Assembly: GCA_034190875.2 (NCBI GenBank)
Contig: CM067349.1
Coordinates: forward strand, 30,616,020 to 30,680,019
From: Urechis unicinctus
Taxonomy: Eukaryota > Annelida > Polychaeta > Xenopneusta > Urechidae
Length of the DNA: 64,000 bases
Direction: 5' to 3'
Shown here: positions 36,044 to 63,188 of the stretch, piece by piece
Layout: the number at the start of each line of letters is the position of its first letter
Numbering within the stretch: the stretch's first letter is position 1
Translations under genes and position numbers: made by a program
The notes under the pieces: model-generated
What the model was told of the DNA's origin: nothing
The model's input: the letters and a program-made list of their open reading frames with translations, nothing else
The model's database searches: none

Positions 36044-39000
36044 ATGTAGTTTTACGCATCCTATGCCCAATTATTCTTCGACAAGCATGAACAAATCGTT
36101 CGGTGGTTTGTGTTATAATGTGTCATTTGAATCGATGGACGATTAAATACGGATTTGTTTTTTTCTCATTAGACACTTAGATATATTTTGCAACAATTCA
36201 GAATATATGCAAGTTATAAATGTAAAGGTATGAATGGCTTTCATACCATTCTTGACAGCTATAACTTTGCTTTCACGTGGTATCATTATTTGGTTAACAT
36301 ATGCATTTATAATACTAGTTTGGGATACAAACTTCCACCTTAGTTGTAGTGTTAGTTTTTTGGTAGCTTTTTCGAACCCGGCACAAATAAATTGAGGATT
36401 CGAAGCATAGCGCGTTTTCAACTTTATATAGAATTTATGATATTACAAAACGCAATTACGTTAAGACATGCGCCTAACCATGACGCATAAACTATTACAT
36501 CTTAACGTCGGAAGAAAGGCTTGTATGTTTCACATAAAAAAAAACAGAATTGTCGTTTGATTGACGTCTGTTGCAGTGGAAATGATTATAACATGCTGTA
36601 TAATAAGTTGACCTTACATATTGCCGTACATATGCAGATTATCAATACATTTTTATTGTGAGGATCACGAGTTAAGTTTCCAACCAGCGAACCAAATGGA
36701 CAAACAAAAACACACTTAAGCTACATCCAGTGGAATCTTACCTGAAATCACGGGTAAGAGATTCCAGGTAGATAATGCTGGTACTTATTTAAAGTACGCG
36801 TGTTTTAAGATAAAGAGAGTACAGTATTGCCTATCAATCCAGCTCATTGGCCTCTTAATATGAAATAAGTTCTTAAGTTGATAACAATCATAACGAAGCT
36901 GTTCGCCAAGTGCTGCATGCTGTCTTTATTTACATCAGTTTGGGGCATTACTGAAGTGCCAACTGAAGAAGCCAATAGAGCTTATAGGAACATCGCTAAG
37001 TCTTACGGCTGTGTTTTTGAAGCTGCCAGGTTATGTTTGTGTAAGAATCAATACCTTCCAGTGATATTACACGACTCCTCAATGGACGGTATTTGATAGC
37101 ATTGACGAGGCGTCATATGTCGAGCATTTCCTGTACATCGTTCACTGGGTGTCCTTCATCCATGATTTATCTATGATAATGGGATTCGTTACATGTCATA
37201 TACACCACAAATAGAAACGTATTGTAACTTACCAGGCAGCACGACCCTTGGGGACCAGTCAAGAGCAATGTGGCACCATGGATGGCTTTCAAGAAGTGCT
37301 AGACAATTTAACTGGCCTTGGTGTGTAGGGGTTGAGCGGGTCGGGTAGCATGCGTTGGACCGCCCAGTGGCCCGTCGTGAGATGACACACCAATAGAGCA
37401 GGTGCTATACATTACTATAGGAGATGTCTTTGTCCGGTACATAAGAACACTGACTGAGGGCATGATGAATAACACCTATTCTACTGAGGCTCGGGTGTAT
37501 TATTTTTTTCTAACGAACTTGTTGATATTGAACAACATCGTGTCATATACCTTCGTAAAACCGATATTGAGATATTATACCCTGATTAAACGAGTACGGC
37601 TTATCTCAGATACGTTATCACGTATTCATCTCTAATTTCCAAAGCATGATCTATACTGGGTGCAGCGGAGGCGCTTCTTCATTCATGCTAGATACTTCGT
37701 GTACAATATGTCTCGGTCATAAGTTACATCTAGTGCTGGGAATCCACCAATCCTTACACAGTTGATATTTACTTGCCACCAGCTAATCGTGGTATACAAA
37801 TATTCTATCTGGTCCGGAATAACTACCACTACAGGGGGTCGTATCTAGGTTTCCAGCTCAATGTACCATCAATAAACATCACGTGAAATCAGGTACCATG
37901 TTCGCAGTGCGGCTACATTAGTGTCAAATAATGTAAAATAAACAAAACAACAGGCGACTGTGTTTGACAGAAAGTAAATGGCTTCATGGGCCGATAATGA
38001 AAAGGTTGGGCAATCGCTGGCTTGGCCGATTATGTTGAAGACCTCCAATTATGTCGAGGAGGTGAGACGAGATAACCACCGACAACTGACCAGTAGTCGG
38101 CAGTATTACACCTGCCTACAGTCAAGTGTTGTAACCTGCACCTGCTGGCATCTGTCTGTGGGTGTTAGTACTAATAAAAGCCAACGATTTTAATGCATAG
38201 CACAACATCTGTGTACGATTGATATTTACAGTCCTTAATCTATGCAAATGTTTACTCTTAATACCGTTCATGACAAGATTGACAGTCGATTAAAACTTTT
38301 AGGCGTAGATTGCTTTTTCTATTTGTGGAGTCGCATCATTAACCCGCAAAAGTATCGTCATCTGAAACCTAACCCAGCCACACATCTTGCTGTGCTGATT
38401 TACACACATGAAAATATTACATAGCCATGGGCATATAACGTCAAGACCCATCAACAAATCCAACGCATATCGATTCACTCGCCTGAACTACCCATTTGTC
38501 ATGAAATAAATGCATATACCAACCCACATTACGACCTTAGCGGTAATACATATATAATATTGAACATATAAAAAAATCGATATATCTGGTGAGGCCTGAA
38601 ATATTTCATATTGAGTGAACTTTAATACATCAGATAAAAATACAATGGCATAAGTGTTATACTAGTGAAACGAACGTTCTGCTCATCGTGCATTCTAATT
38701 AAGCTGAGAGCGGTGATGCTACCGAATGTGTCTTTGCTGACTTAACGTTTGGATCACTAATAGAAAACATCAGTGGAAGAAAACTCAGACGTTTTGGAGC
38801 GTTGAACTACACTGATTGGAAGTAATATAATAAGACCCAAAAACAAACACCAGATCAAAGGTGTTACACGTGGATATCATTCATATAAGTAAGATTGTTT
38901 CGCTGTGAAAGAATTGCCTTGCAAATCGGGCATTTGTATGATGCATGATTGTCCTGGAGTTATATGTTTATGGAATTGGCAAAACATACAGCATACCATT

Positions 39001-39368
39001 TTTATACAAAAGGCACGTGTCGGATGTAATCGAACGTTACCGTGCATGTGTTTTGTCACATATTAAGCGATGTAAAACAGTACAAATACGATATGAGAAT
39101 TACTGATAGTTATATTCTGAGTATGCTTCCAGTGTATTTATTGCATTTAATGCACCAACTGAACAAAGCAATCGTATGACTTACGTGGGAGAGAAGCTTA
39201 AGGTGGAGTATTTTATAACTATGACTCCTATTTGAGAGCGCTTCAGCCGTGAAAATCTACAGACCGATCGCCTTTGCGTCAGCAATATGTGCGCTCTCGC
39301 TCTCAATAAAAAGTGACTTGTAGCATCAGCAAAAAAAGATGTAATGTGTTTATATGTATGTCAACTAA

Positions 39369-39372
39369 TTAA
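39369..39372 (+). repeat. TTAA target-site duplication, left
   Basis: TTAA directly precedes the AGATCA terminus. It matches TTAA at 43,239-43,242, and the paralogous site in unit I (28,695-28,698) reads TTTA between the same flanks 'caactaa' and 'cataac'. Confidence 0.85.
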
Positions 39373-39578
39373 AGATCAAAACTAACATTTTTTGGCATAT
39401 CCGATTTGTATGTTGCAAAATGTAGGAAAATATCTTTTAATCTGACCACGGTAGATAATTTTACATTCTCTCAAGTACTGTGGACATAAATCCGCTGAGA
39501 ATGTGGTGCTCGGGTTTAATTCCGATCGAATTCCCAGAGTCCATTTTGCACCAGTTGGTCGCTAGGAGGCAGGTCGCG

Positions 39579-39586
39579 TGACGTCA
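39579..39586. promoter_or_regulatory. CRE-like palindrome TGACGTCA, left gene
   Basis: A full TGACGTCA (the consensus for CREB/ATF factors) about 120 bp upstream of the ATG of the P2X7-like gene. Its context 'gtgacgtcacgtttgc' is mirrored by the right-hand site ('gtgacgtcacgttcgc' on the minus strand), so the two are part of a subterminal inverted repeat. The promoter role is inferred from position. Confidence 0.45.
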
Positions 39587-39703
39587 CGTTTGCGGCTCGT
39601 CCCAAAACAAATTCGAAGGCGGTATTTCGGAAGCTGAGAAACATTATACGATCCGCGATTTTTTCCCTGCAACTTTCCTTTCTACTGATAGGTATCTATT
39701 AAC

Positions 39704-40940
39704 ATGTCGTCATCAGATGAAGATTATGAAGCCCCATTAGGTGAAATGGGTATTTATTTGAGCCCACACAATTGCGAATAACAAACGAGTCAGATAATGG
39801 TGTTGGGAGCTCAGAAACGGATTCCGATTCGGAAAATGAATTCAGCAAAGACGCTTTGACTTTCAGGCCAGTGGGAGTGTGGTGGGTAGAAATTTTTCTT
39901 CTCTATTAGTCTAAATGGATTAGCACCGGTAGAAATAACATTTCTGTGTAATGGGGTCTATCTGGCCCACACACCCAAGTCAATAAATTCACCCAGCGCG
40001 TTCCCCGAGCGATAGTGACATGTATGATAATATACATAATTGACTTGGGTGCCTGTGAACTGATCCTTTCAGAATTTAGACGTCCTGTTAATATATCTCT
40101 CATCAGCGTATATTTAAAAGACTAAGTCTACTCTTTTGCTCACAAATAAAGTCAGAATGCTGAGAAGAACTGAATCATGGACAAACATGGACTGCTGGGT
40201 CAGCTTTTGTTATGTGAATGATCTAACTTGGAGTTCAAAATGGTTAAGCTTGATTTGGGCAACCTTTCAGGTGTAGCTGTAACAACTGCGATCAGATGAC
40301 CACATTGCGGGAATGTGTTTGTTGTCGAAATTACCCGAAGATTGGCAACAATAGAAGAGTGGCCATGTATGACCGAACATCCAGGGTTCAAGTCAACCTG
40401 CTTGGACCGTTATGTCCTGCTTGCATGGAAATTCGAGTTCATACAGATAGATGGACATATAGGGGATGAAGTTAACACAAATGAGTTAGTTATGCCTTTA
40501 TTGAAGCACTTATAAGACACACAGCCACTTCTGGACATGGACAATGTGTATCCCAAGTGTCCATGTTGTGCAATACATTTGGTAATCACGTTCAGTGCTA
40601 CCCCATGACAACAAACAGCAAAACCAGCAATACATTTATATCTGGAGTACATAGTTGACAAAAAAAAGAGTTAAAAAACATTACTTTCATATTTCCCTAA
40701 GAAATAATTAATTCTTTTTTACTCCAGGTTATTCAGATATTTGGCCTATCGCCGTTTCATCTACTGGGTGTGGCACAGATTAGGTAGACATAACAGAAAA
40801 GTATTGCCATCATGTGTCTTAAACAAAATAAGATCTACATTCCCAGAAAGTATTGCCATCATGTGTCTTAAACAAAATAAGATCTACATTCCCAGACCCA
40901 GAGGGCCTTTACAGAGGATACCTAGAAAGTAGCCGAGTAG
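39704..40940 (+). pseudogene. P2X7 ballast-domain-like protein gene, three exons, broken
   Basis: Proposed exons are 39,704-39,881, 40,271-40,484 and 40,728 to about 40,940. Splice signals (donor GTGGGT, acceptor TTTCAG; donor GTTAGT, acceptor CTCCAG) join in consistent phase. Exon 1 gives an acidic/serine-rich start with a 'GYLFEP' motif and ends in W completed across the intron. Exon 2 begins with cysteines spaced C-S-C-N-N-C, then 'ECVCCR' and 'MTEHPGFKSTCL'. Exon 3 reads 'YRRFIYWVWHRLGRHNRKV', then 'LPSCVLNKIRSTFP'. These motifs in this order match the cysteine-rich C-terminal (ballast, zinc-binding) domain of P2X7 receptors and the many stand-alone invertebrate proteins with that domain. 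There are no transmembrane or ATP-binding P2X parts. Lesions are a one-base frameshift near 39,746, one near 40,345, and a 49-bp tandem duplication (40,799-40,896) that shifts the frame. The 3' end overlaps the transposase gene on the other strand. Confidence 0.75.
40799..40896 (+). repeat. 49-bp perfect tandem duplication
   Basis: The segment 40,799-40,847 ('aagtattgccatcatgtgtc...') is repeated exactly at 40,848-40,896. It lies in exon 3 of the P2X7-like gene, and since 49 is not a multiple of three it breaks the frame. Reading from the second copy restores the family-like continuation 'FPDPEGLYRGYLES'. Confidence 0.97.
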
Positions 40941-42916
40941 ATTTTGTTTGCATGATTGAAGCGGCATCGCCGTGCTCCCACAAGGATGTCCTTTGCTGGC
41001 TTTTCAAATTGAGCAGCAATAGGGGGCGGAACACTCCTTTCCACAGAAAGAACTTTCGCCAGTCTGTAATTGGGATATTTCTCACGAAGCACAAACACTT
41101 CAGTAATGAGGTTGTCAACATAATCTGAAGCATAACCAGTTAATAAAAGATTAGTAATAAATTGTCTTTGAATCATTAAATGGAATGTTTGATCTTTTGT
41201 GCCAGTATAATTACCCTATGGGCATGGCAGAGACTCATAATAAATTTATCTTAATAAATGCCAGCATTACATTATTGTTTAACTCATATTTACATATATT
41301 GAAAAACAAATCCTGTGATATATACCAATCAAAAGTGATGGGAACTTTGACAGGCTTCACCACTGGATCCCCCTGTCTGGACTTTGGAAAGGACACTCCC
41401 CATTGTGCCTGGCCTTGTGGAGTGACTGCCTGAGCTCTATTGGAGTTTTCATTAAAATGCAAAACTGCAAGGAGTAATCTGGAAGTAAAGCACCAACAGT
41501 AGCAGATATAGCCTGGTGGTCTGGCATGCCTATGTGAGCTCACAATACACCAGCATGTCATAACTTTATAAGGACCAACATAAACCCGTGTTTTACATCA
41601 GGTATTTGCAATATATACCACACTACAGTCACAGCAAAGCTCAAATTACCTTGCTTCCATAGTGGCAAAGGGAAAGTGTACACTCTTGGGCACGAAGAAG
41701 ATCACCACCTTGTGGAAAGATTCTAAGCTGCCAATTTCTTTCAGAAGGTGTTTGCTGTTCATGACCAGGGCCATCCTCTAGCTCAATGTCACTATAAAAC
41801 CAAAGTTGTAGGTGCTTTATTAGGCTTATGAGAGAGCACTGATTTGTATAAGTATGCAATACAATTCCACTGTTTACAGGGGTATTTTCAAAGTAATCTA
41901 TCACTTACATTTCCTGGTGCACTGCATGTTCATCCATATCATCCTCGTCACTTTCCATGTCGAATATAGACATCTAGGTGACTCAATATACCTACAAGCA
42001 AGCATGTTTGAACTCCAAACGATTTTGTGGAGCCCTCTACCGGTTCAGTTGAGCTGGCCTCTATCTCGGGCACACCTGTCATCTCCTTTTCACATTCACT
42101 GGAGGCATCAAGCATCTCAGCTCCAGTTAACATTTCATGCAGCACCTACAAACAGAGGCATCATGTGTTTCAGTGTCGACCAGTTGTACACCAATGATAT
42201 TTCCCAAAATAGGGATCAAAATCACCTATATCAATATACTTCTATGTACAGACTGTCTAATTTATCCTATGACATCAGTAGTACTCATGTAAATGGACCA
42301 ATTAAACACAGTATGTAGTGTATCCAAATCCCTAAACAATAAACAGGCAATGTCAAGCAAGCATTTTGAGATCACATTGAAACACCAGTTATTCTGTTAT
42401 TGAGCCATGCCCATGGGGCCTTTCTTTACCTGTTTACAAGTGATGCCTTAGCCTTAACACGGCCATGTCATTTGGGTCGTATGATTATTCATATAAGAAA
42501 TAAATTTTGCTGTCAATCAAACACAAAGGGCACAACCATGACTGGGATTTAGTGGGAATGAAAATTGAATGGTCCTAGCTATCTTACCTGTTGACGTCGT
42601 CTTTTCTCAAAGGCACCTCGACGTTTTACTCGATCCTGGTTCACACCCATGTAATTGAAAATCGTTGGCATGGCACCTTGGCGAAACCTAGTTTGTGTAG
42701 AAAAGCCCAGACTTTTGAGCAGCTCTGGGTCAGTTTCATAGGCGTCCCTCTCAAAGTGGTCGGAGCAAAGGACAGTTGTTTTGGTCGGCTTCCAATATCC
42801 TTCCTCTTCACCTTTGCAATCGAATTCTTGTGCATGTTTCGGTCTTTCGGGAACCGAAAGAAACTCTTACCCGACCTCTCGTCGTTTCTACACCAACCGG
42901 CACAACAATAAGGCAT
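40922..42916 (-). pseudogene. THAP-domain Kolobok-like transposase remnant
   Basis: The ATG at 42,916 opens exon 1 (to 42,588, donor GTAAGAT). It encodes 'MPYCCAGWC', 'SFFRFPKD', then in a shifted frame 'WKPTKTTVLCSDHF' and 'AMPTIF'. That is the C2CH THAP zinc finger with its closing motif, with a one-base frameshift near 42,795. Exon 2 starts at 42,145 in phase and is acidic. A later exon (41,777-41,650) reads 'LLKEIGSLESFHKVVIFF' and 'PKSVHFPFATMEAR'; it joins in phase to 41,478 onward ('LLLAVLHFNENSNRAQA', then a 'SFPKSRQG' motif). The last exon, 41,124-40,922, starts 'YVDNLITEVF' and carries 'PPPIAAQFEKPAK' before the TAG stop. These C-terminal blocks are the conserved tail of THAP/Kolobok-type transposase proteins. 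Between exon 2 and 41,777 there is room for only a few hundred bases, and no catalytic-core motifs are seen. The donor after 'VPITFDW' does not join cleanly to the last exon. The gene is internally deleted and non-functional. Confidence 0.8.
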
Positions 42917-43047
42917 AGTCCAAACTGTGAGTGTAACAAGCCGTGAAGACTTTTTCATAAACCATCAACGAGCCGCGACAACAATGGCGAACCTTGTTGA
43001 CATTCGTGATCGAGCCTCCGTGATCAGCGAGCACAGAGCAGCGAACG

Positions 43048-43055
43048 TGACGTCA
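43048..43055. promoter_or_regulatory. CRE-like palindrome TGACGTCA, right gene
   Basis: Lies about 130 bp upstream of the transposase ATG (42,916) in near mirror image to 39,579-39,586. The role as a promoter element is inferred from position and symmetry. Confidence 0.45.
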
Positions 43056-43238
43056 CGGGCCAAATAATTCCGAACGTTGCCGAGCGGGATGTTCAACGCG
43101 AGGAAGATGAAAACATACACTTTAAAATCATTTTTTAAAGGAATAGGGTGCTCCAAAGTAACCGCTATTGATATGAATACCATTATTGAAGTTTATTCTT
43201 TCGAATTTCGTTTAAAAAAAAAAATGGGTTTATGATCT

Positions 43239-43242
43239 TTAA
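43239..43242 (+). repeat. TTAA target-site duplication, right
   Basis: TTAA directly follows the terminal GATCT. The flank 'cataactatgaatta' continues as in unit I from 28,699. Confidence 0.85.
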
Positions 43243-43379
43243 CATAACTATGAATTATTTGATTTTCAATCTTGAAAAATAGTAAAAGATCAGTGCGAAC
43301 TATGTTCCTGATATTCAATGTCAAATATCGTCGCCTATGGTTGAAGCAAAAAGCCAGAATTACCTGCTCATGGTCGTGA

Positions 43380-46300
43380 CTCGATCATTTGTGATTAAAT
43401 ATCACGCATTCGAATTACAATGATAAGCCATTTGATGTTTAGCCATTTCAGGTGAAAATATAGCGTAACTTGATGTTAACTTGGCGAATAGTGTCTAGAC
43501 GGGGGCAGCAAGCGTCACCATTTCCCTTGGCCAAATGCATCTTCTGGCATGTTATAGTCAGCAAACCTTGTGTTATTATTGCGCATTATCTTCGCTATAT
43601 ACTATGAGGAACTAATACATCTTTAATGTGCTAACAATCTTGAGATCAGCCGAAGCAGTAAGCAGTATATTTATCATTTGTTTTCATTTTCCCTAAATAT
43701 CATAACGATTACCTGGATGGATAATACGTGAACTGGTGATATTCACATACCACTAATATACGTGACTTAGATAAGGTTAGGGTTCACTCTTGCAAGGAGA
43801 AAACTTCATCACTGTGAGTCAGCTGATGTGAGTTCTTCGTGGAATTGACAATTCCTTTATGTTACATATGATATTGATAATACTAGCAGGTTGTGTATTT
43901 CGGTATACAATCTCCATAACAGATGTCTGTGTCATGTAAGTACCACATCTTGTTCAATGAAGCGATCCAAATTCCAAACACAGCATGTTCTTTTCCTGCT
44001 GACTTGAGCTGTTAGGTTATAAACAAGGCGGCCCTACAGCAACAGGTGTGGTGATGTATCAACACCGTGGCCCCAAACAGAGGCGGCAAGAGGTAAAAAA
44101 GTCAGACATGGAGGCAACGCAAGCAACATATACATTGAAAACATATCATATCGGCCCTCCCTGGCTACCTGAACCATGGACTTGGTTACGTGATTAGTTT
44201 CGATAATCATGATGAACGCATCCTGATGACGCCGGTAGCGCCACTTAACGATGGCTGTATATTATAATTAGTGAAGCGATCACCGCAGAGCGAAGCTATA
44301 AACTCTTTGCATAGACTACCTCCAGTCAGCCATGTGATTAGTTAGTTGCAAGTTGTGTTAGATTCTGGTATTTATGTAGCCATGGTATTTTGAGACATAT
44401 TTTACCTTCAACACATACTGCACTGACCTTTTGATCTATATAACCGAACTACGTCTTTGATAAACAGAGCAATATCCACGGCTGAGCATTGCTGAGACCC
44501 CATTCTACGTGTCCTTCTCCTAGTTTACAGATATCTGCAAGTGATGCTTGTGTTAATCGTACACAACATTCATGCACTCATTCACTCACAAACTCACGTA
44601 TGCCATTTATAATGAGAGAATCGCTGTGTCTTGTACCATACAATACGGCAACGAATTGGTATAGGTGATTTCGTTCATAAATTTACTATGCGATTCTTAG
44701 CATTGATCACAATAGCTCCGGTAGCTAGCATGGGTTATCCCTCTCGTGTTATACAGAACGAATTTCTTGGTGATTGTGCTAAATGAAAAGTCAATTTCAA
44801 ATATATACTTTCACGTGATAACAGTACATTACACAGAGTACTGAGGATAGATACTCATAGCGGACAAAGGATGAACCGATGAAGCATTGGAAAATTTATC
44901 TGACTCACCTCCTACCTTGTAATTGCATCTGTACAATGGCTGAACCATTAGATTACAAGTGTTTTAAGTTATAATAAGTAATATTTGATTTGGTAAAAAA
45001 CAGTGTTAAATGGCATGATGTCACTAGGCAAATACAAAACCACCAACAGGCTTGTAGTGAAAAGTCACAAACACAGCTTTCCTGTAACACCCCCCCTCCT
45101 ACTACAACTCCCTCCCTCTCCCACCCATTAACACATCTTCACCCTCAAATCACACACACATCTCACCCCGGCAAAGCGTTTTATCTTATGATATCACTAA
45201 AAAGCATATCATTGAGGTATCATTAACCCTACAGGTTCTGTAGAATTTGGTTCCCAAGTCTGTGTATATTTACAAACAGTGAACCATCAGGCAATTGTAT
45301 ATGCGATGAGCTGTGTTTATTTCGGTTATTTTTTGTATAAATGGCTGTTGGTATGGCATCATTCGCTAGAGGTGCTCATAGAGGGATATGTTACATGGTA
45401 CTCATGAAGCGATTTACGATATAGCCCAGTATTAATCTCCAGCTGACATCAAAAGCTGCATGCGCGATCAACTAACGTTACAAGTGGCACCAACCACCAG
45501 GCGGATGGTGCAGCTTTATTTTGTGTAATGGTTGTGCACTGGTCCTCAGTAAGCGTTTATAAAATACGTCCTTAACTAAAGATTCCTTTTCAATGTTTGT
45601 TGACGGATTATGTGCAATAAGTACGAAGTTATTTCTTCAGCGTAGAATCAGTATAATTATGAAGCAAAAGACAATAGCAACTTACAAAATATGTAATATA
45701 GGTGACATTGAGAAAGAACACTACAAATAGCCCTGTTAATGGAAACGAAAATGTACCCCTGCTAATAGTGACACTAACTGTATAGGCAAATAATGTGTGC
45801 GAATAAATAGCGTTGGGTGATTCGTGATGTTGAACAAAATGGACAAGTTGTATGTATTTTTCAAATACAATCTTTTCAGATACTTGTTGTAATGCTGTCT
45901 CGACAGAAGCAGTACGCCTTATCTAAATTGGAACATGTGGTTTGTTCATGATTGACCCATCAGCAGCGAACGTATGGATTCACTGTAATTCGTATCCAGC
46001 TGACTGATGATTGCAATCATCAAATGTGGGTTTCATCATTTAATACGTGGTTCGTCAATTATTAGATGGCATAAATTAGTTAAGGTCTGGCGATGCATGG
46101 TGCGTGTAAATAATTATTTTCTAAAACACAGCCTCATTGCATGGTTCAAGGAAAACAAATACTTACTCCATAACAGCAATAACCTTTACCAGGAAGTTAA
46201 TTAACTGCGACTTTGGTCGTTATTTACAAATCATTAGGTTCAAATGAGCGCCTAATCATGACTTATCACTTATTAGAGATGAATTACTTACACAGAAAAC

Positions 46301-57886: not shown

Positions 57887-57990
57887 GACCCAAGTTAAAC
57901 TGAGAAGGTGTGACAGATTTTCTCCTCGTGTTATTTCTTCATGAGACACTTCGTGAATTCGTGAATGACTACACACTCCATCACGTGAAT

Positions 57991-58665
57991 ATGTCAGAGA
58001 AAAAGGAGGGGAAGAAACCGGGGCTTATGAAGCGCCTCTTCAGTTCCCGTAAGATGAGCGTCAACGCTGATGTGGTGGCGGAAGTTGAGGCGGAAGACAA
58101 GAACAATGACAAGAAGAACAAGATGCATCGCATGCATTCCGTCGATGGAACTTCCGCCAAAAAACAAAACGGAGATGATTCGATCCATAAGGATAACAAA
58201 GTGGTTAAGAAGCAGCATTCTGAGGGAGGGAAAGGCTCAGGGAAGGGCAAGTCTAGCAGTCGAGGTTCTTCTTCAAGGGCATCCACTTCCGCCGCCAAAC
58301 CGAAAGGAAAGGCCCGAAAGAAAAAGAAAGGGTCGCGTCAAAAGGGCGAGGTTACTGTGGATGTTGATGTATCCGTGCCGATTCCGTGGCCTGTCACGCC
58401 GGAAATTCTGTTGGCTTACCATAAAAAGAAGTCTTTCCTCAACCAGAACGAGGAATGGTTGGTAGTGGAACTGAATGAATACGAATGTCTAGTCGAAAAC
58501 ATGGACATCATTAAAATTATCGCGAAGCACTCCAAATTCTTTGAAGTGGAACCCGACGAACTTTGGGACGAGTTCTTTGAGTTTATGGAGGATGTTCCGA
58601 CGTACGATGAAATTGTGAACTATGACGTATGGCAGGAATTCCGCGATGAGAAGTACCCGTACTAA
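57991..58665 (+). CDS. Uncharacterised 224-residue protein, basic N-half and acidic C-half
   Basis: The first ATG of the frame is 57,991; the frame stays open upstream but without an ATG, back to a splice acceptor at 57,886. Residues 1-22 are basic ('KKEGKKPGLMKRLF'). Residues 30-120 are low-complexity and charged, with a Ser/Gly run at 82-100 and a Lys/Arg cluster at 103-119 that could bind nucleic acid or act as a nuclear signal. Residues 121-224 look folded: 'VDVSVPIPWPVTPEILLAYH' is followed by acidic, aromatic segments ('FFEVEPDELWDEFFEFMED' at 183-201) and the end 'EFRDEKYPY'. No cysteine-rich, membrane or signal features are visible. I do not recognise the family. The uniform codon use, the length of the frame and the change from disordered to ordered composition support a real gene. 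It lies about 3.3 kb upstream of the sulfotransferase gene on the same strand, with no sign of a link. Confidence 0.75.
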   Translation: MSEKKEGKKPGLMKRLFSSRKMSVNADVVAEVEAEDKNNDKKNKMHRMHSVDGTSAKKQNGDDSIHKDNKVVKKQHSEGGKGSGKGKSSSRGSSSRASTSAAKPKGKARKKKKGSRQKGEVTVDVDVSVPIPWPVTPEILLAYHKKKSFLNQNEEWLVVELNEYECLVENMDIIKIIAKHSKFFEVEPDELWDEFFEFMEDVPTYDEIVNYDVWQEFRDEKYPY

Positions 58666-61979: not shown

Positions 61980-62006
61980 ATTGAGTCAATGATAGGCTGA
62001 TCAAGT

Positions 62007-63188
62007 ATGGTGTCGGCGCGAATCACTCGGAGTATGGTAAGCCTGCTGCGCGCCATCACTCTCATCTTATTCTGGGCTGTCATGGCGTCTGTGTTGGCCG
62101 AGCATGGATCGCGATTTTTCGGCAATTTCTTTCTTGGAAATACAACAGAGAGTGATATCGATGTGGATATCGCAGCCATTCGTCGTGATCAAATGGATAT
62201 GCCGGTGATGCCTACAAAGCCGAAGGCCAATACAGTTGCACCAGCCACTTTACCCGCTGTGAACAGGTCGAACGTTAGTGAAGTAAGAGGCGTAGAATTC
62301 GAGCTTCCCTTTGAAAAAAAGCCTCCAGTTGTTATCAGTAGTGATACTGGGGAGGATGATGATGTTATGTCGAAGGGCGTCCAACGACTGCCTGATTGCA
62401 TTGTGATAGGAGTACGGAAGGGAGGAACGCGCGCTCTGACCACTTTCCTGGCGCTCCATCCTAACATAGTAACTGTGAAAAGGGAAGTCGAGTTCTTCAA
62501 TGATGATAACAACTATAACAAAGGCTTAGACTGGTACCGTAAACAGATGCCAATGTCACATCCAACGAAACAAGTGCTCATCGAAAAATCGGCAGAATAT
62601 TTCCATAAATCCTTTGTTCCTGAACGCGTATATAAAATGAAGAAAGATATCAAGTTGATATTGGTGGTACGAGATCCATTCGTTCGTCTTGTGTCGGATT
62701 ATAACTTTATCCGGCGCTATGCGGCCATGACTGCTTCAAGCTATCCATTTATAGAACTCAGGCACAGCTTAGAAGACCTTCTCATAGATAATAGAACAGG
62801 TCAACTTATATACGATCATAAAGAATTCGGCGGTCTTCATCGCTCACAATACGCTAAATTCTTCAAGAATTGGCTAGACTGGTTTCCAAGAGAAAACATC
62901 CATATAGTCGACGGTGACCGCCTTGCCAAAGAGAACCCCGCGTTTGAGCTGAGTAAAGTTGAAACATTTATCAATGTCAAACATTACCTCACGGAAGACA
63001 TGTTTGTTTTTGACGAGCAAAAAGGATTCTATTGCACCAAGGCAACAGGGTGTCTAGGAAAGGAAAAGGGCCATAAACTTCCCAATTTTGACCCAGTCTT
63101 TGTCAGAAAGGTAAAAATGTTTTTCAAGAAATTCAACGATCAATTTTATGAACTTGCTGGTCGAACATTTGATTGGGACCGCATGTAA
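62007..63188 (+). CDS. Heparan sulfate 3-O-sulfotransferase-like enzyme
   Basis: A 393-residue protein of type II Golgi membrane topology: a short basic N-terminus, one membrane segment (about 11-30), then a stem to about 125 with sequons at N45, N86 and N89, then the sulfotransferase domain. The 5'-phosphosulfate loop is 'GVRKGGTRAL' (135-144, K138). The catalytic glutamate is expected at E160 in 'REVEFF'. The 3'-phosphate site is 'VRDPFVRLVSDY' (221-232, R222 and S230). Also present are 'IHIVDGDRL' (298-306), the cysteine pair C343/C349 and the cofactor loop 'GCLGKEKGHK' (348-357), and the C-terminal 'GRTFDW' (385-390). These are the ordered hallmarks of the 3-O-sulfotransferase (HS3ST) family, which moves sulfate from PAPS to the 3-OH of glucosamine in heparan sulfate. 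Length fits the family. The coding region is a single exon. Vertebrate enzymes have His where this one has E162 (EVHFF), so substrate preference or activity may differ. The in-frame ATG after a splice acceptor sets the start. Confidence 0.92.
   Translation: MVSARITRSMVSLLRAITLILFWAVMASVLAEHGSRFFGNFFLGNTTESDIDVDIAAIRRDQMDMPVMPTKPKANTVAPATLPAVNRSNVSEVRGVEFELPFEKKPPVVISSDTGEDDDVMSKGVQRLPDCIVIGVRKGGTRALTTFLALHPNIVTVKREVEFFNDDNNYNKGLDWYRKQMPMSHPTKQVLIEKSAEYFHKSFVPERVYKMKKDIKLILVVRDPFVRLVSDYNFIRRYAAMTASSYPFIELRHSLEDLLIDNRTGQLIYDHKEFGGLHRSQYAKFFKNWLDWFPRENIHIVDGDRLAKENPAFELSKVETFINVKHYLTEDMFVFDEQKGFYCTKATGCLGKEKGHKLPNFDPVFVRKVKMFFKKFNDQFYELAGRTFDWDRM

What the first reader, a model, noticed from the sequence alone, without database searches (positions are those of the whole stretch)
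39373..43238. One TTAA transposon carries both a THAP transposase and a P2X7 ballast-domain gene
Within one element bounded by inverted ends and TTAA duplications, a minus-strand THAP/Kolobok-type transposase remnant and a plus-strand three-exon gene with P2X7 C-terminal cysteine motifs face each other. The ballast domain is best known from the cytoplasmic tail of vertebrate P2X7 receptors and from many orphan invertebrate proteins. Finding it as cargo, or as a second gene, of a DNA transposon would explain how it spread. It would also raise the possibility that the receptor tail was captured from a mobile element. The linkage is seen in the sequence; the evolutionary reading is inference.
Basis: partly seen in the sequence, partly recalled or inferred. 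Interest (0 to 1): 0.88.

Follow-up and report, generated by a model that had tools for sequence, protein, structure and literature searches.

The report
Decayed Kolobok transposon carrying KolX gene
This is a broken copy of a two-gene jumping gene (a Kolobok transposon) whose second gene makes the same zinc-binding domain found in the tail of the vertebrate P2X7 receptor, a link that was already published in 2022.

Summary
Window 39373-43238 is one element between TTAA copies, with ends AGATCA...TGATCT and a mirrored 22-bp subterminal repeat (20/22) near both ends. Two decayed genes converge inside it. The plus-strand gene, read as three exons, carries the P2X7 ballast domain (Pfam P2RX7_C): E 4.8e-07 for one untouched piece, 8.6e-16 joined. 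It also matches solved P2X7 chains (E 2.1e-05, joined query). The minus-strand gene starts with a THAP domain (E 6.8e-06 untouched, 2.3e-12 joined).

The reading is right but not new. Kojima & Bao 2022 (PMC9587614; parts read) report that Kol0-lineage Kolobok transposons encode a DDD/E transposase plus KolX, that KolX has the ballast fold, and that P2X7 arose by fusion of a P2X4-like gene with KolX. This element is best read as a dead Kol0-type copy. Its transposase looks short; a small motif scan found no first two catalytic acids.

Whether other copies carry both genes could not be tested: the genome search did not complete. A mirrored promoter-like repeat before both genes is the one detail I did not see described.

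The parts
39369..39372 (.). TTAA target-site copy, left
   Evidence: sequence
39373..39392 (+). left terminal inverted repeat, begins 5'-AGATCA (RR start); length approximate
   Evidence: TTAAAGATCA is unique in the window
39577..39598 (+). left copy of the mirrored 22-bp subterminal repeat, contains the palindrome GTGACGTCAC
39704..39881 (+). KolX-like gene, exon 1 (ATG at 39704; acidic N-terminal part); one frame break. The 3' limit is my reading of a splice donor
40271..40484 (+). KolX-like gene, exon 2 (first and second cysteine clusters of the ballast domain); one frame break; limits are my reading of splice sites
   Evidence: (P2RX7_C E 0.16 alone, below cut-off)
40728..40930 (+). KolX-like gene, exon 3 (end of the ballast domain), with a 49-nt tandem duplication that breaks the frame; 3' limit approximate
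   Evidence: (P2RX7_C E 4.8e-07)
42588..42916 (-). THAP-domain exon of the transposase gene (ATG at 42916 on the minus strand); one frame break; 3' limit is my reading of a splice donor
   Evidence: (THAP E 6.8e-06)
40922..42145 (-). remaining decayed exons of the transposase gene, with an HFNEN motif near 41459 and a last open piece that ends at 40922; no separate domain above a Pfam cut-off
43036..43057 (-). right copy of the mirrored 22-bp subterminal repeat
43219..43238 (-). right terminal inverted repeat, ends TGATCT-3' (YY end); length approximate
43239..43242 (.). TTAA target-site copy, right
   Evidence: sequence

Best explanation
A dead copy of a Kolobok DNA transposon of the Kol0 kind. 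The transposase, through its THAP DNA-binding domain, would have bound the element ends (possibly the subterminal repeat) and moved the element into TTAA sites. The second gene, KolX, encodes a short zinc-binding ballast-fold protein that I take to be an accessory factor of transposition or of its regulation. The two genes start behind mirrored promoter-like repeats and converge. Shown: ends, TTAA copies, the two domains, gene layout, decay. Inferred: Kol0 lineage, transposase and promoter function, and every role of KolX. As it stands this copy cannot make either full protein.
For: TTAA copies and unique inverted ends; RR...YY termini, which PMC9587614 gives as setting Kolobok apart from piggyBac; THAP and P2RX7_C domains on opposite strands; P2X7 the only molecule among the 4 distinct sequences found in solved structures; mirrored 22-bp repeat and start codons 118 and 132 bp inside it; the published Kol0 gene pair, DDD/E transposase plus KolX with ballast fold.
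Against: No catalytic D-D core was recognised in the minus-strand gene (a short recalled motif list), and no Pfam transposase family matched. No other copy could be fetched. No Kol0 reference sequence was at hand to align. The orientation of the two genes in described Kol0 elements was not seen in the text I read.
Confidence: 0.9

Rival explanations
1. Chance nesting: a host ballast-domain gene, or a separate element holding it, was inserted into or beside a THAP transposon.
For: Only one copy was seen. A 20-nt, 80% inverse match to the left end lies inside at 41178-41197.
Against: Each gene starts at a similar distance behind its own end, behind the same 22-bp repeat. The inner match is not next to a TTAA and would cut off the transposase's last open piece; cut to the 20 nt that start at AGATCA, the left end finds no inverse match in the window at up to 4 mismatches. 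The same gene pair is published for Kol0.
Confidence: 0.04
2. [quoted passage not shown]
For: TTAA copies; statement in section 12 of PMC9587614.
Against: Termini are RR...YY, which that paper gives as setting Kolobok apart from piggyBac. It says those piggyBac proteins lack most of the 7 cysteines, whereas here seven pair with P2X7 cysteines in the second alignment. The partner gene carries THAP.
Confidence: 0.02
3. A non-autonomous Kol0 family whose copies all carry this short transposase, moved by another element's enzyme, rather than one damaged copy of a full element. This is a subtype of the best explanation, so the two confidences do not add up to 1.
For: The minus-strand pieces that I could join come to 358 aa and show no recognised D-D core. 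The rows I saw of the Xenopus Kolobok table give reading frames of about 2.1-2.6 kb (PMC6004289).
Against: None decisive; exon ends are uncertain in a decayed gene, and one damaged copy explains the same facts.
Confidence: 0.4

Closest known systems
Kolobok transposons, Kol0 lineage (represented by Kolobok-1_XT), Kojima & Bao 2022, PMC9587614
   Same: TTAA duplication, RR...YY termini, two genes: a transposase and KolX with ballast fold
   Different: This copy is decayed and no D-D core was recognised in its transposase; gene orientation in the described elements was not seen in the text read
P2X7 receptor C-terminal ballast domain (Pfam P2RX7_C; PDB 6u9v, 9e3m)
   Same: In the second of the two alignments shown seven cysteines pair, and the PSC...IR..FP...Y.G ending is kept. 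In the first, better-scoring one the N-terminal cysteine cluster is not clearly paired
   Different: No P2X channel part. Of the GDP-binding residues listed by Rump et al., R546 and R578 are kept and H547, R574 and K583 are not (my reading)
Orphan ZCD/ballast proteins and Nanor (Rump et al. 2020, PMC7016195)
   Same: Short protein with the ballast domain at its C-terminus and no channel
   Different: Treated there as host genes; the word stem 'transpos' does not occur in that main text. Kojima & Bao take Nanor as a likely domesticated KolX
Xenopus Kolobok transposases (PMC6004289)
   Same: THAP C2CH domain
   Different: There 17 of 38 X. tropicalis and 7 of 24 X. laevis proteins are said to keep the motifs, DDE included (passage); here DDE was not recognised. 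P2X is not mentioned there

Membership tests
Kolobok superfamily | TTAA 4-bp target-site duplication | tested here: met
Kolobok superfamily | termini 5'-RR and YY-3' | tested here: met
   AG...CT; rule from PMC9587614
Kolobok superfamily | THAP domain in the transposase | tested here: met
   Pfam THAP; named as usual for Kolobok in PMC6004289
Kolobok superfamily | DDD/E catalytic core with C/DxxH and zinc finger | tested here: inconclusive
   a short recalled motif list found no D-D core; loose C/D..H patterns hit 5 times, one of them inside the THAP domain, none in a recognisable core; an HFNEN motif near 41459 may hold the last E; no Kolobok profile was at hand
Kol0 lineage | second gene KolX with ballast fold | tested here: met
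   by sequence only: P2RX7_C E 4.8e-07 untouched, 8.6e-16 joined, P2X7 chains; definition
Kol0 lineage | transposase groups with Kol0 in a tree | not testable with these tools
   homologue search switched off; no reference sequences held
KolobokP | long terminal direct repeats of about 450 or 660 bp | tested here: not met
   longest direct repeat found in 39000-43700 is 49 nt (the tool can miss copies under about 65% alike)
KolobokP | His-Me finger nuclease gene | tested here: not met
   no nuclease family in the pieces scanned
P2X7 receptor gene | P2X channel domain before the ballast domain | tested here: not met
   no P2X channel hit in the pieces scanned

The most novel reading that the evidence does not exclude
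The mirrored 22-bp repeat with a GTGACGTCAC palindrome is at once the promoter of both genes and the site read by the transposon's own THAP protein or by KolX, so the element would control its gene expression and its mobility through one site. The ballast domain would then have begun as a DNA- or transposase-binding regulator before P2X7 took it over.
Probability: 0.12. Interest if true: 0.65.

Novelty: already known. Interest (0 to 1): 0.35.

Why it matters
It is a further sighting, from raw sequence, of the gene pair on which the published origin of the P2X7 tail rests. If KolX's job in the transposon were known, it would say what the ballast domain did before it became part of an immune receptor. 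That open question can be tested in intact Kol0 copies, not in this one.

Tried and rejected
Chance ends: rejected as sole reading, since the subterminal match falls in mirrored positions in the real window and in 0 of 100 shuffles. End similarity by score alone was weak: 14 of 992 random pairs as good or better.

Inner copy of the left end at 41178-41197 as border of a separate ballast element: rejected, no TTAA beside it, and it would cut the transposase gene.

KolobokP: rejected, no long direct repeats found.

Relatives elsewhere: with the joined ballast query, viral contigs gave 2 pattern matches and genome contigs (prokaryotes) 28, none a relative by tblastn; both are a poor place to look for animal transposons. 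Element DNA against the window: only itself; protein pieces against the window's ORFs: only themselves. Rfam and tRNA scans of the window: nothing.

Literature: answered searches. PMC9587614: outline, text parts 1-3 of 6, section 16 and passages. PMC7016195: outline with abstract, and passages. PMC6004289: passages. All other papers, PMC9319628 included, which holds 'P2X7' and 'Kolobok' once each: listings only. None of the searches asked for the mirrored repeat, and the figures and supplements were not seen, so I do not claim that it is unpublished.

Full report
What is there. The element spans 39373-43238 between TTAA copies at 39369-39372 and 43239-43242. The 10-mers TTAAAGATCA and TGATCTTTAA each occur once in the window, at these two places, facing each other. 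Inside both ends lies a 22-bp inverted repeat, 20 of 22 matched, found nowhere else in the window at up to 5 mismatches. Its palindrome GTGACGTCAC occurs only at these two places; the shorter TGACGTCA occurs 7 times in the window. In 100 first-order Markov shuffles, facing TTAA-RR-plus-4 pairs 2-6 kb apart occur on average 0.78 times (3 in the real window), and none of the 100 has one with a shared subterminal 14-mer (real: 1). Against this, the best local alignment of the two 340-bp ends is equalled or beaten by 14 of 992 random pairs.

The plus-strand gene. Overlapping open pieces at 39745-39909, 40254-40515 and 40708-41128 read as three exons; the splice sites are my reading. Without any joining, 40708-40932 matches Pfam P2RX7_C at E 4.8e-07; joined pieces give 8.6e-16 over profile positions 76-191 of 192. 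phmmer of the joined query against solved structures finds P2X7 and no other molecule in the 4 distinct sequences listed (best E 2.1e-05). The cysteine clusters and the ending follow, with exceptions, the consensus that Rump et al. give for the Zn-coordinating domain. The gene is broken by a frame break in each of exons 1 and 2 and by a 49-nt tandem duplication in exon 3.

The minus-strand gene. It starts at 42916 with a THAP domain broken by a frame break (E 6.8e-06 for one untouched piece, 2.3e-12 joined), runs through an acidic stretch and ends at about 40922. No further Pfam family reached its cut-off; weak hits below it were TX13_rpt (E 0.061 and 0.14), Helitron_like_N (0.038) and bpX1 (0.18), and four further pieces from inside the element gave none. 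A scan with a short, recalled list of catalytic-core motifs found nothing of the D-D type and one HFNEN. I read this as a transposase with its core missing; without a Kolobok profile this stays inconclusive.

Layout. The two start codons lie 118 and 132 bp inside the palindromes, which lie 206 and 183 bp inside the ends. The genes meet tail to tail near 40922-40930. A chance nested insertion would hardly give this symmetry. TGACGTCA is, from memory, the CREB/ATF site; promoter function is inference, and the 7 occurrences in the window show that the core alone is not special.

What it is. [quoted passage not shown]). They also write that it had not been pointed out that ballast-like proteins are a part of Kolobok elements. 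Of the four Kolobok features I tested, the present element meets three; the fourth, the catalytic core, is inconclusive. It is therefore best taken as another copy of a known kind of element, and the idea in the finding is published.

What I could not do. The source organism is unknown to me; a sulfotransferase frame at 62001-63188 (E 2.7e-23) and the introns fit an animal genome, which is inference.

Mechanism. Most likely KolX was an accessory or regulatory partner of the transposase (inference; in the papers and passages that I saw there is no experiment on KolX). The mirrored subterminal repeat is a candidate binding site for THAP or KolX and a candidate shared promoter. This is the part worth following.

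Noticed in passing
window 39577-39598 and 43036-43057: Mirrored 22-bp repeat with GTGACGTCAC about 120-130 bp before the start codon of each gene; possible shared promoter or protein-binding site.
   Followed up: partly
literature: PMC7016195 passage (Ixodes scapularis XP_029850348): Rump et al. report a tick protein with a 'TAHP' domain before the ballast domain. If that is a misprint for THAP, it could be the two Kol0 genes, or parts of them, in one gene model. Not checked.
   Followed up: no
window 62001-63188: Long open frame with a Sulfotransfer_1 domain (E 2.7e-23), a likely host sulfotransferase gene.
   Followed up: no
window 41178-41197: An inner 20-nt, 80% inverse match to the left end, without TTAA beside it; probably chance.
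   Followed up: partly
window 57904-58665: 253-aa open frame rich in lysine and serine with no Pfam family at E 0.1.
   Followed up: no
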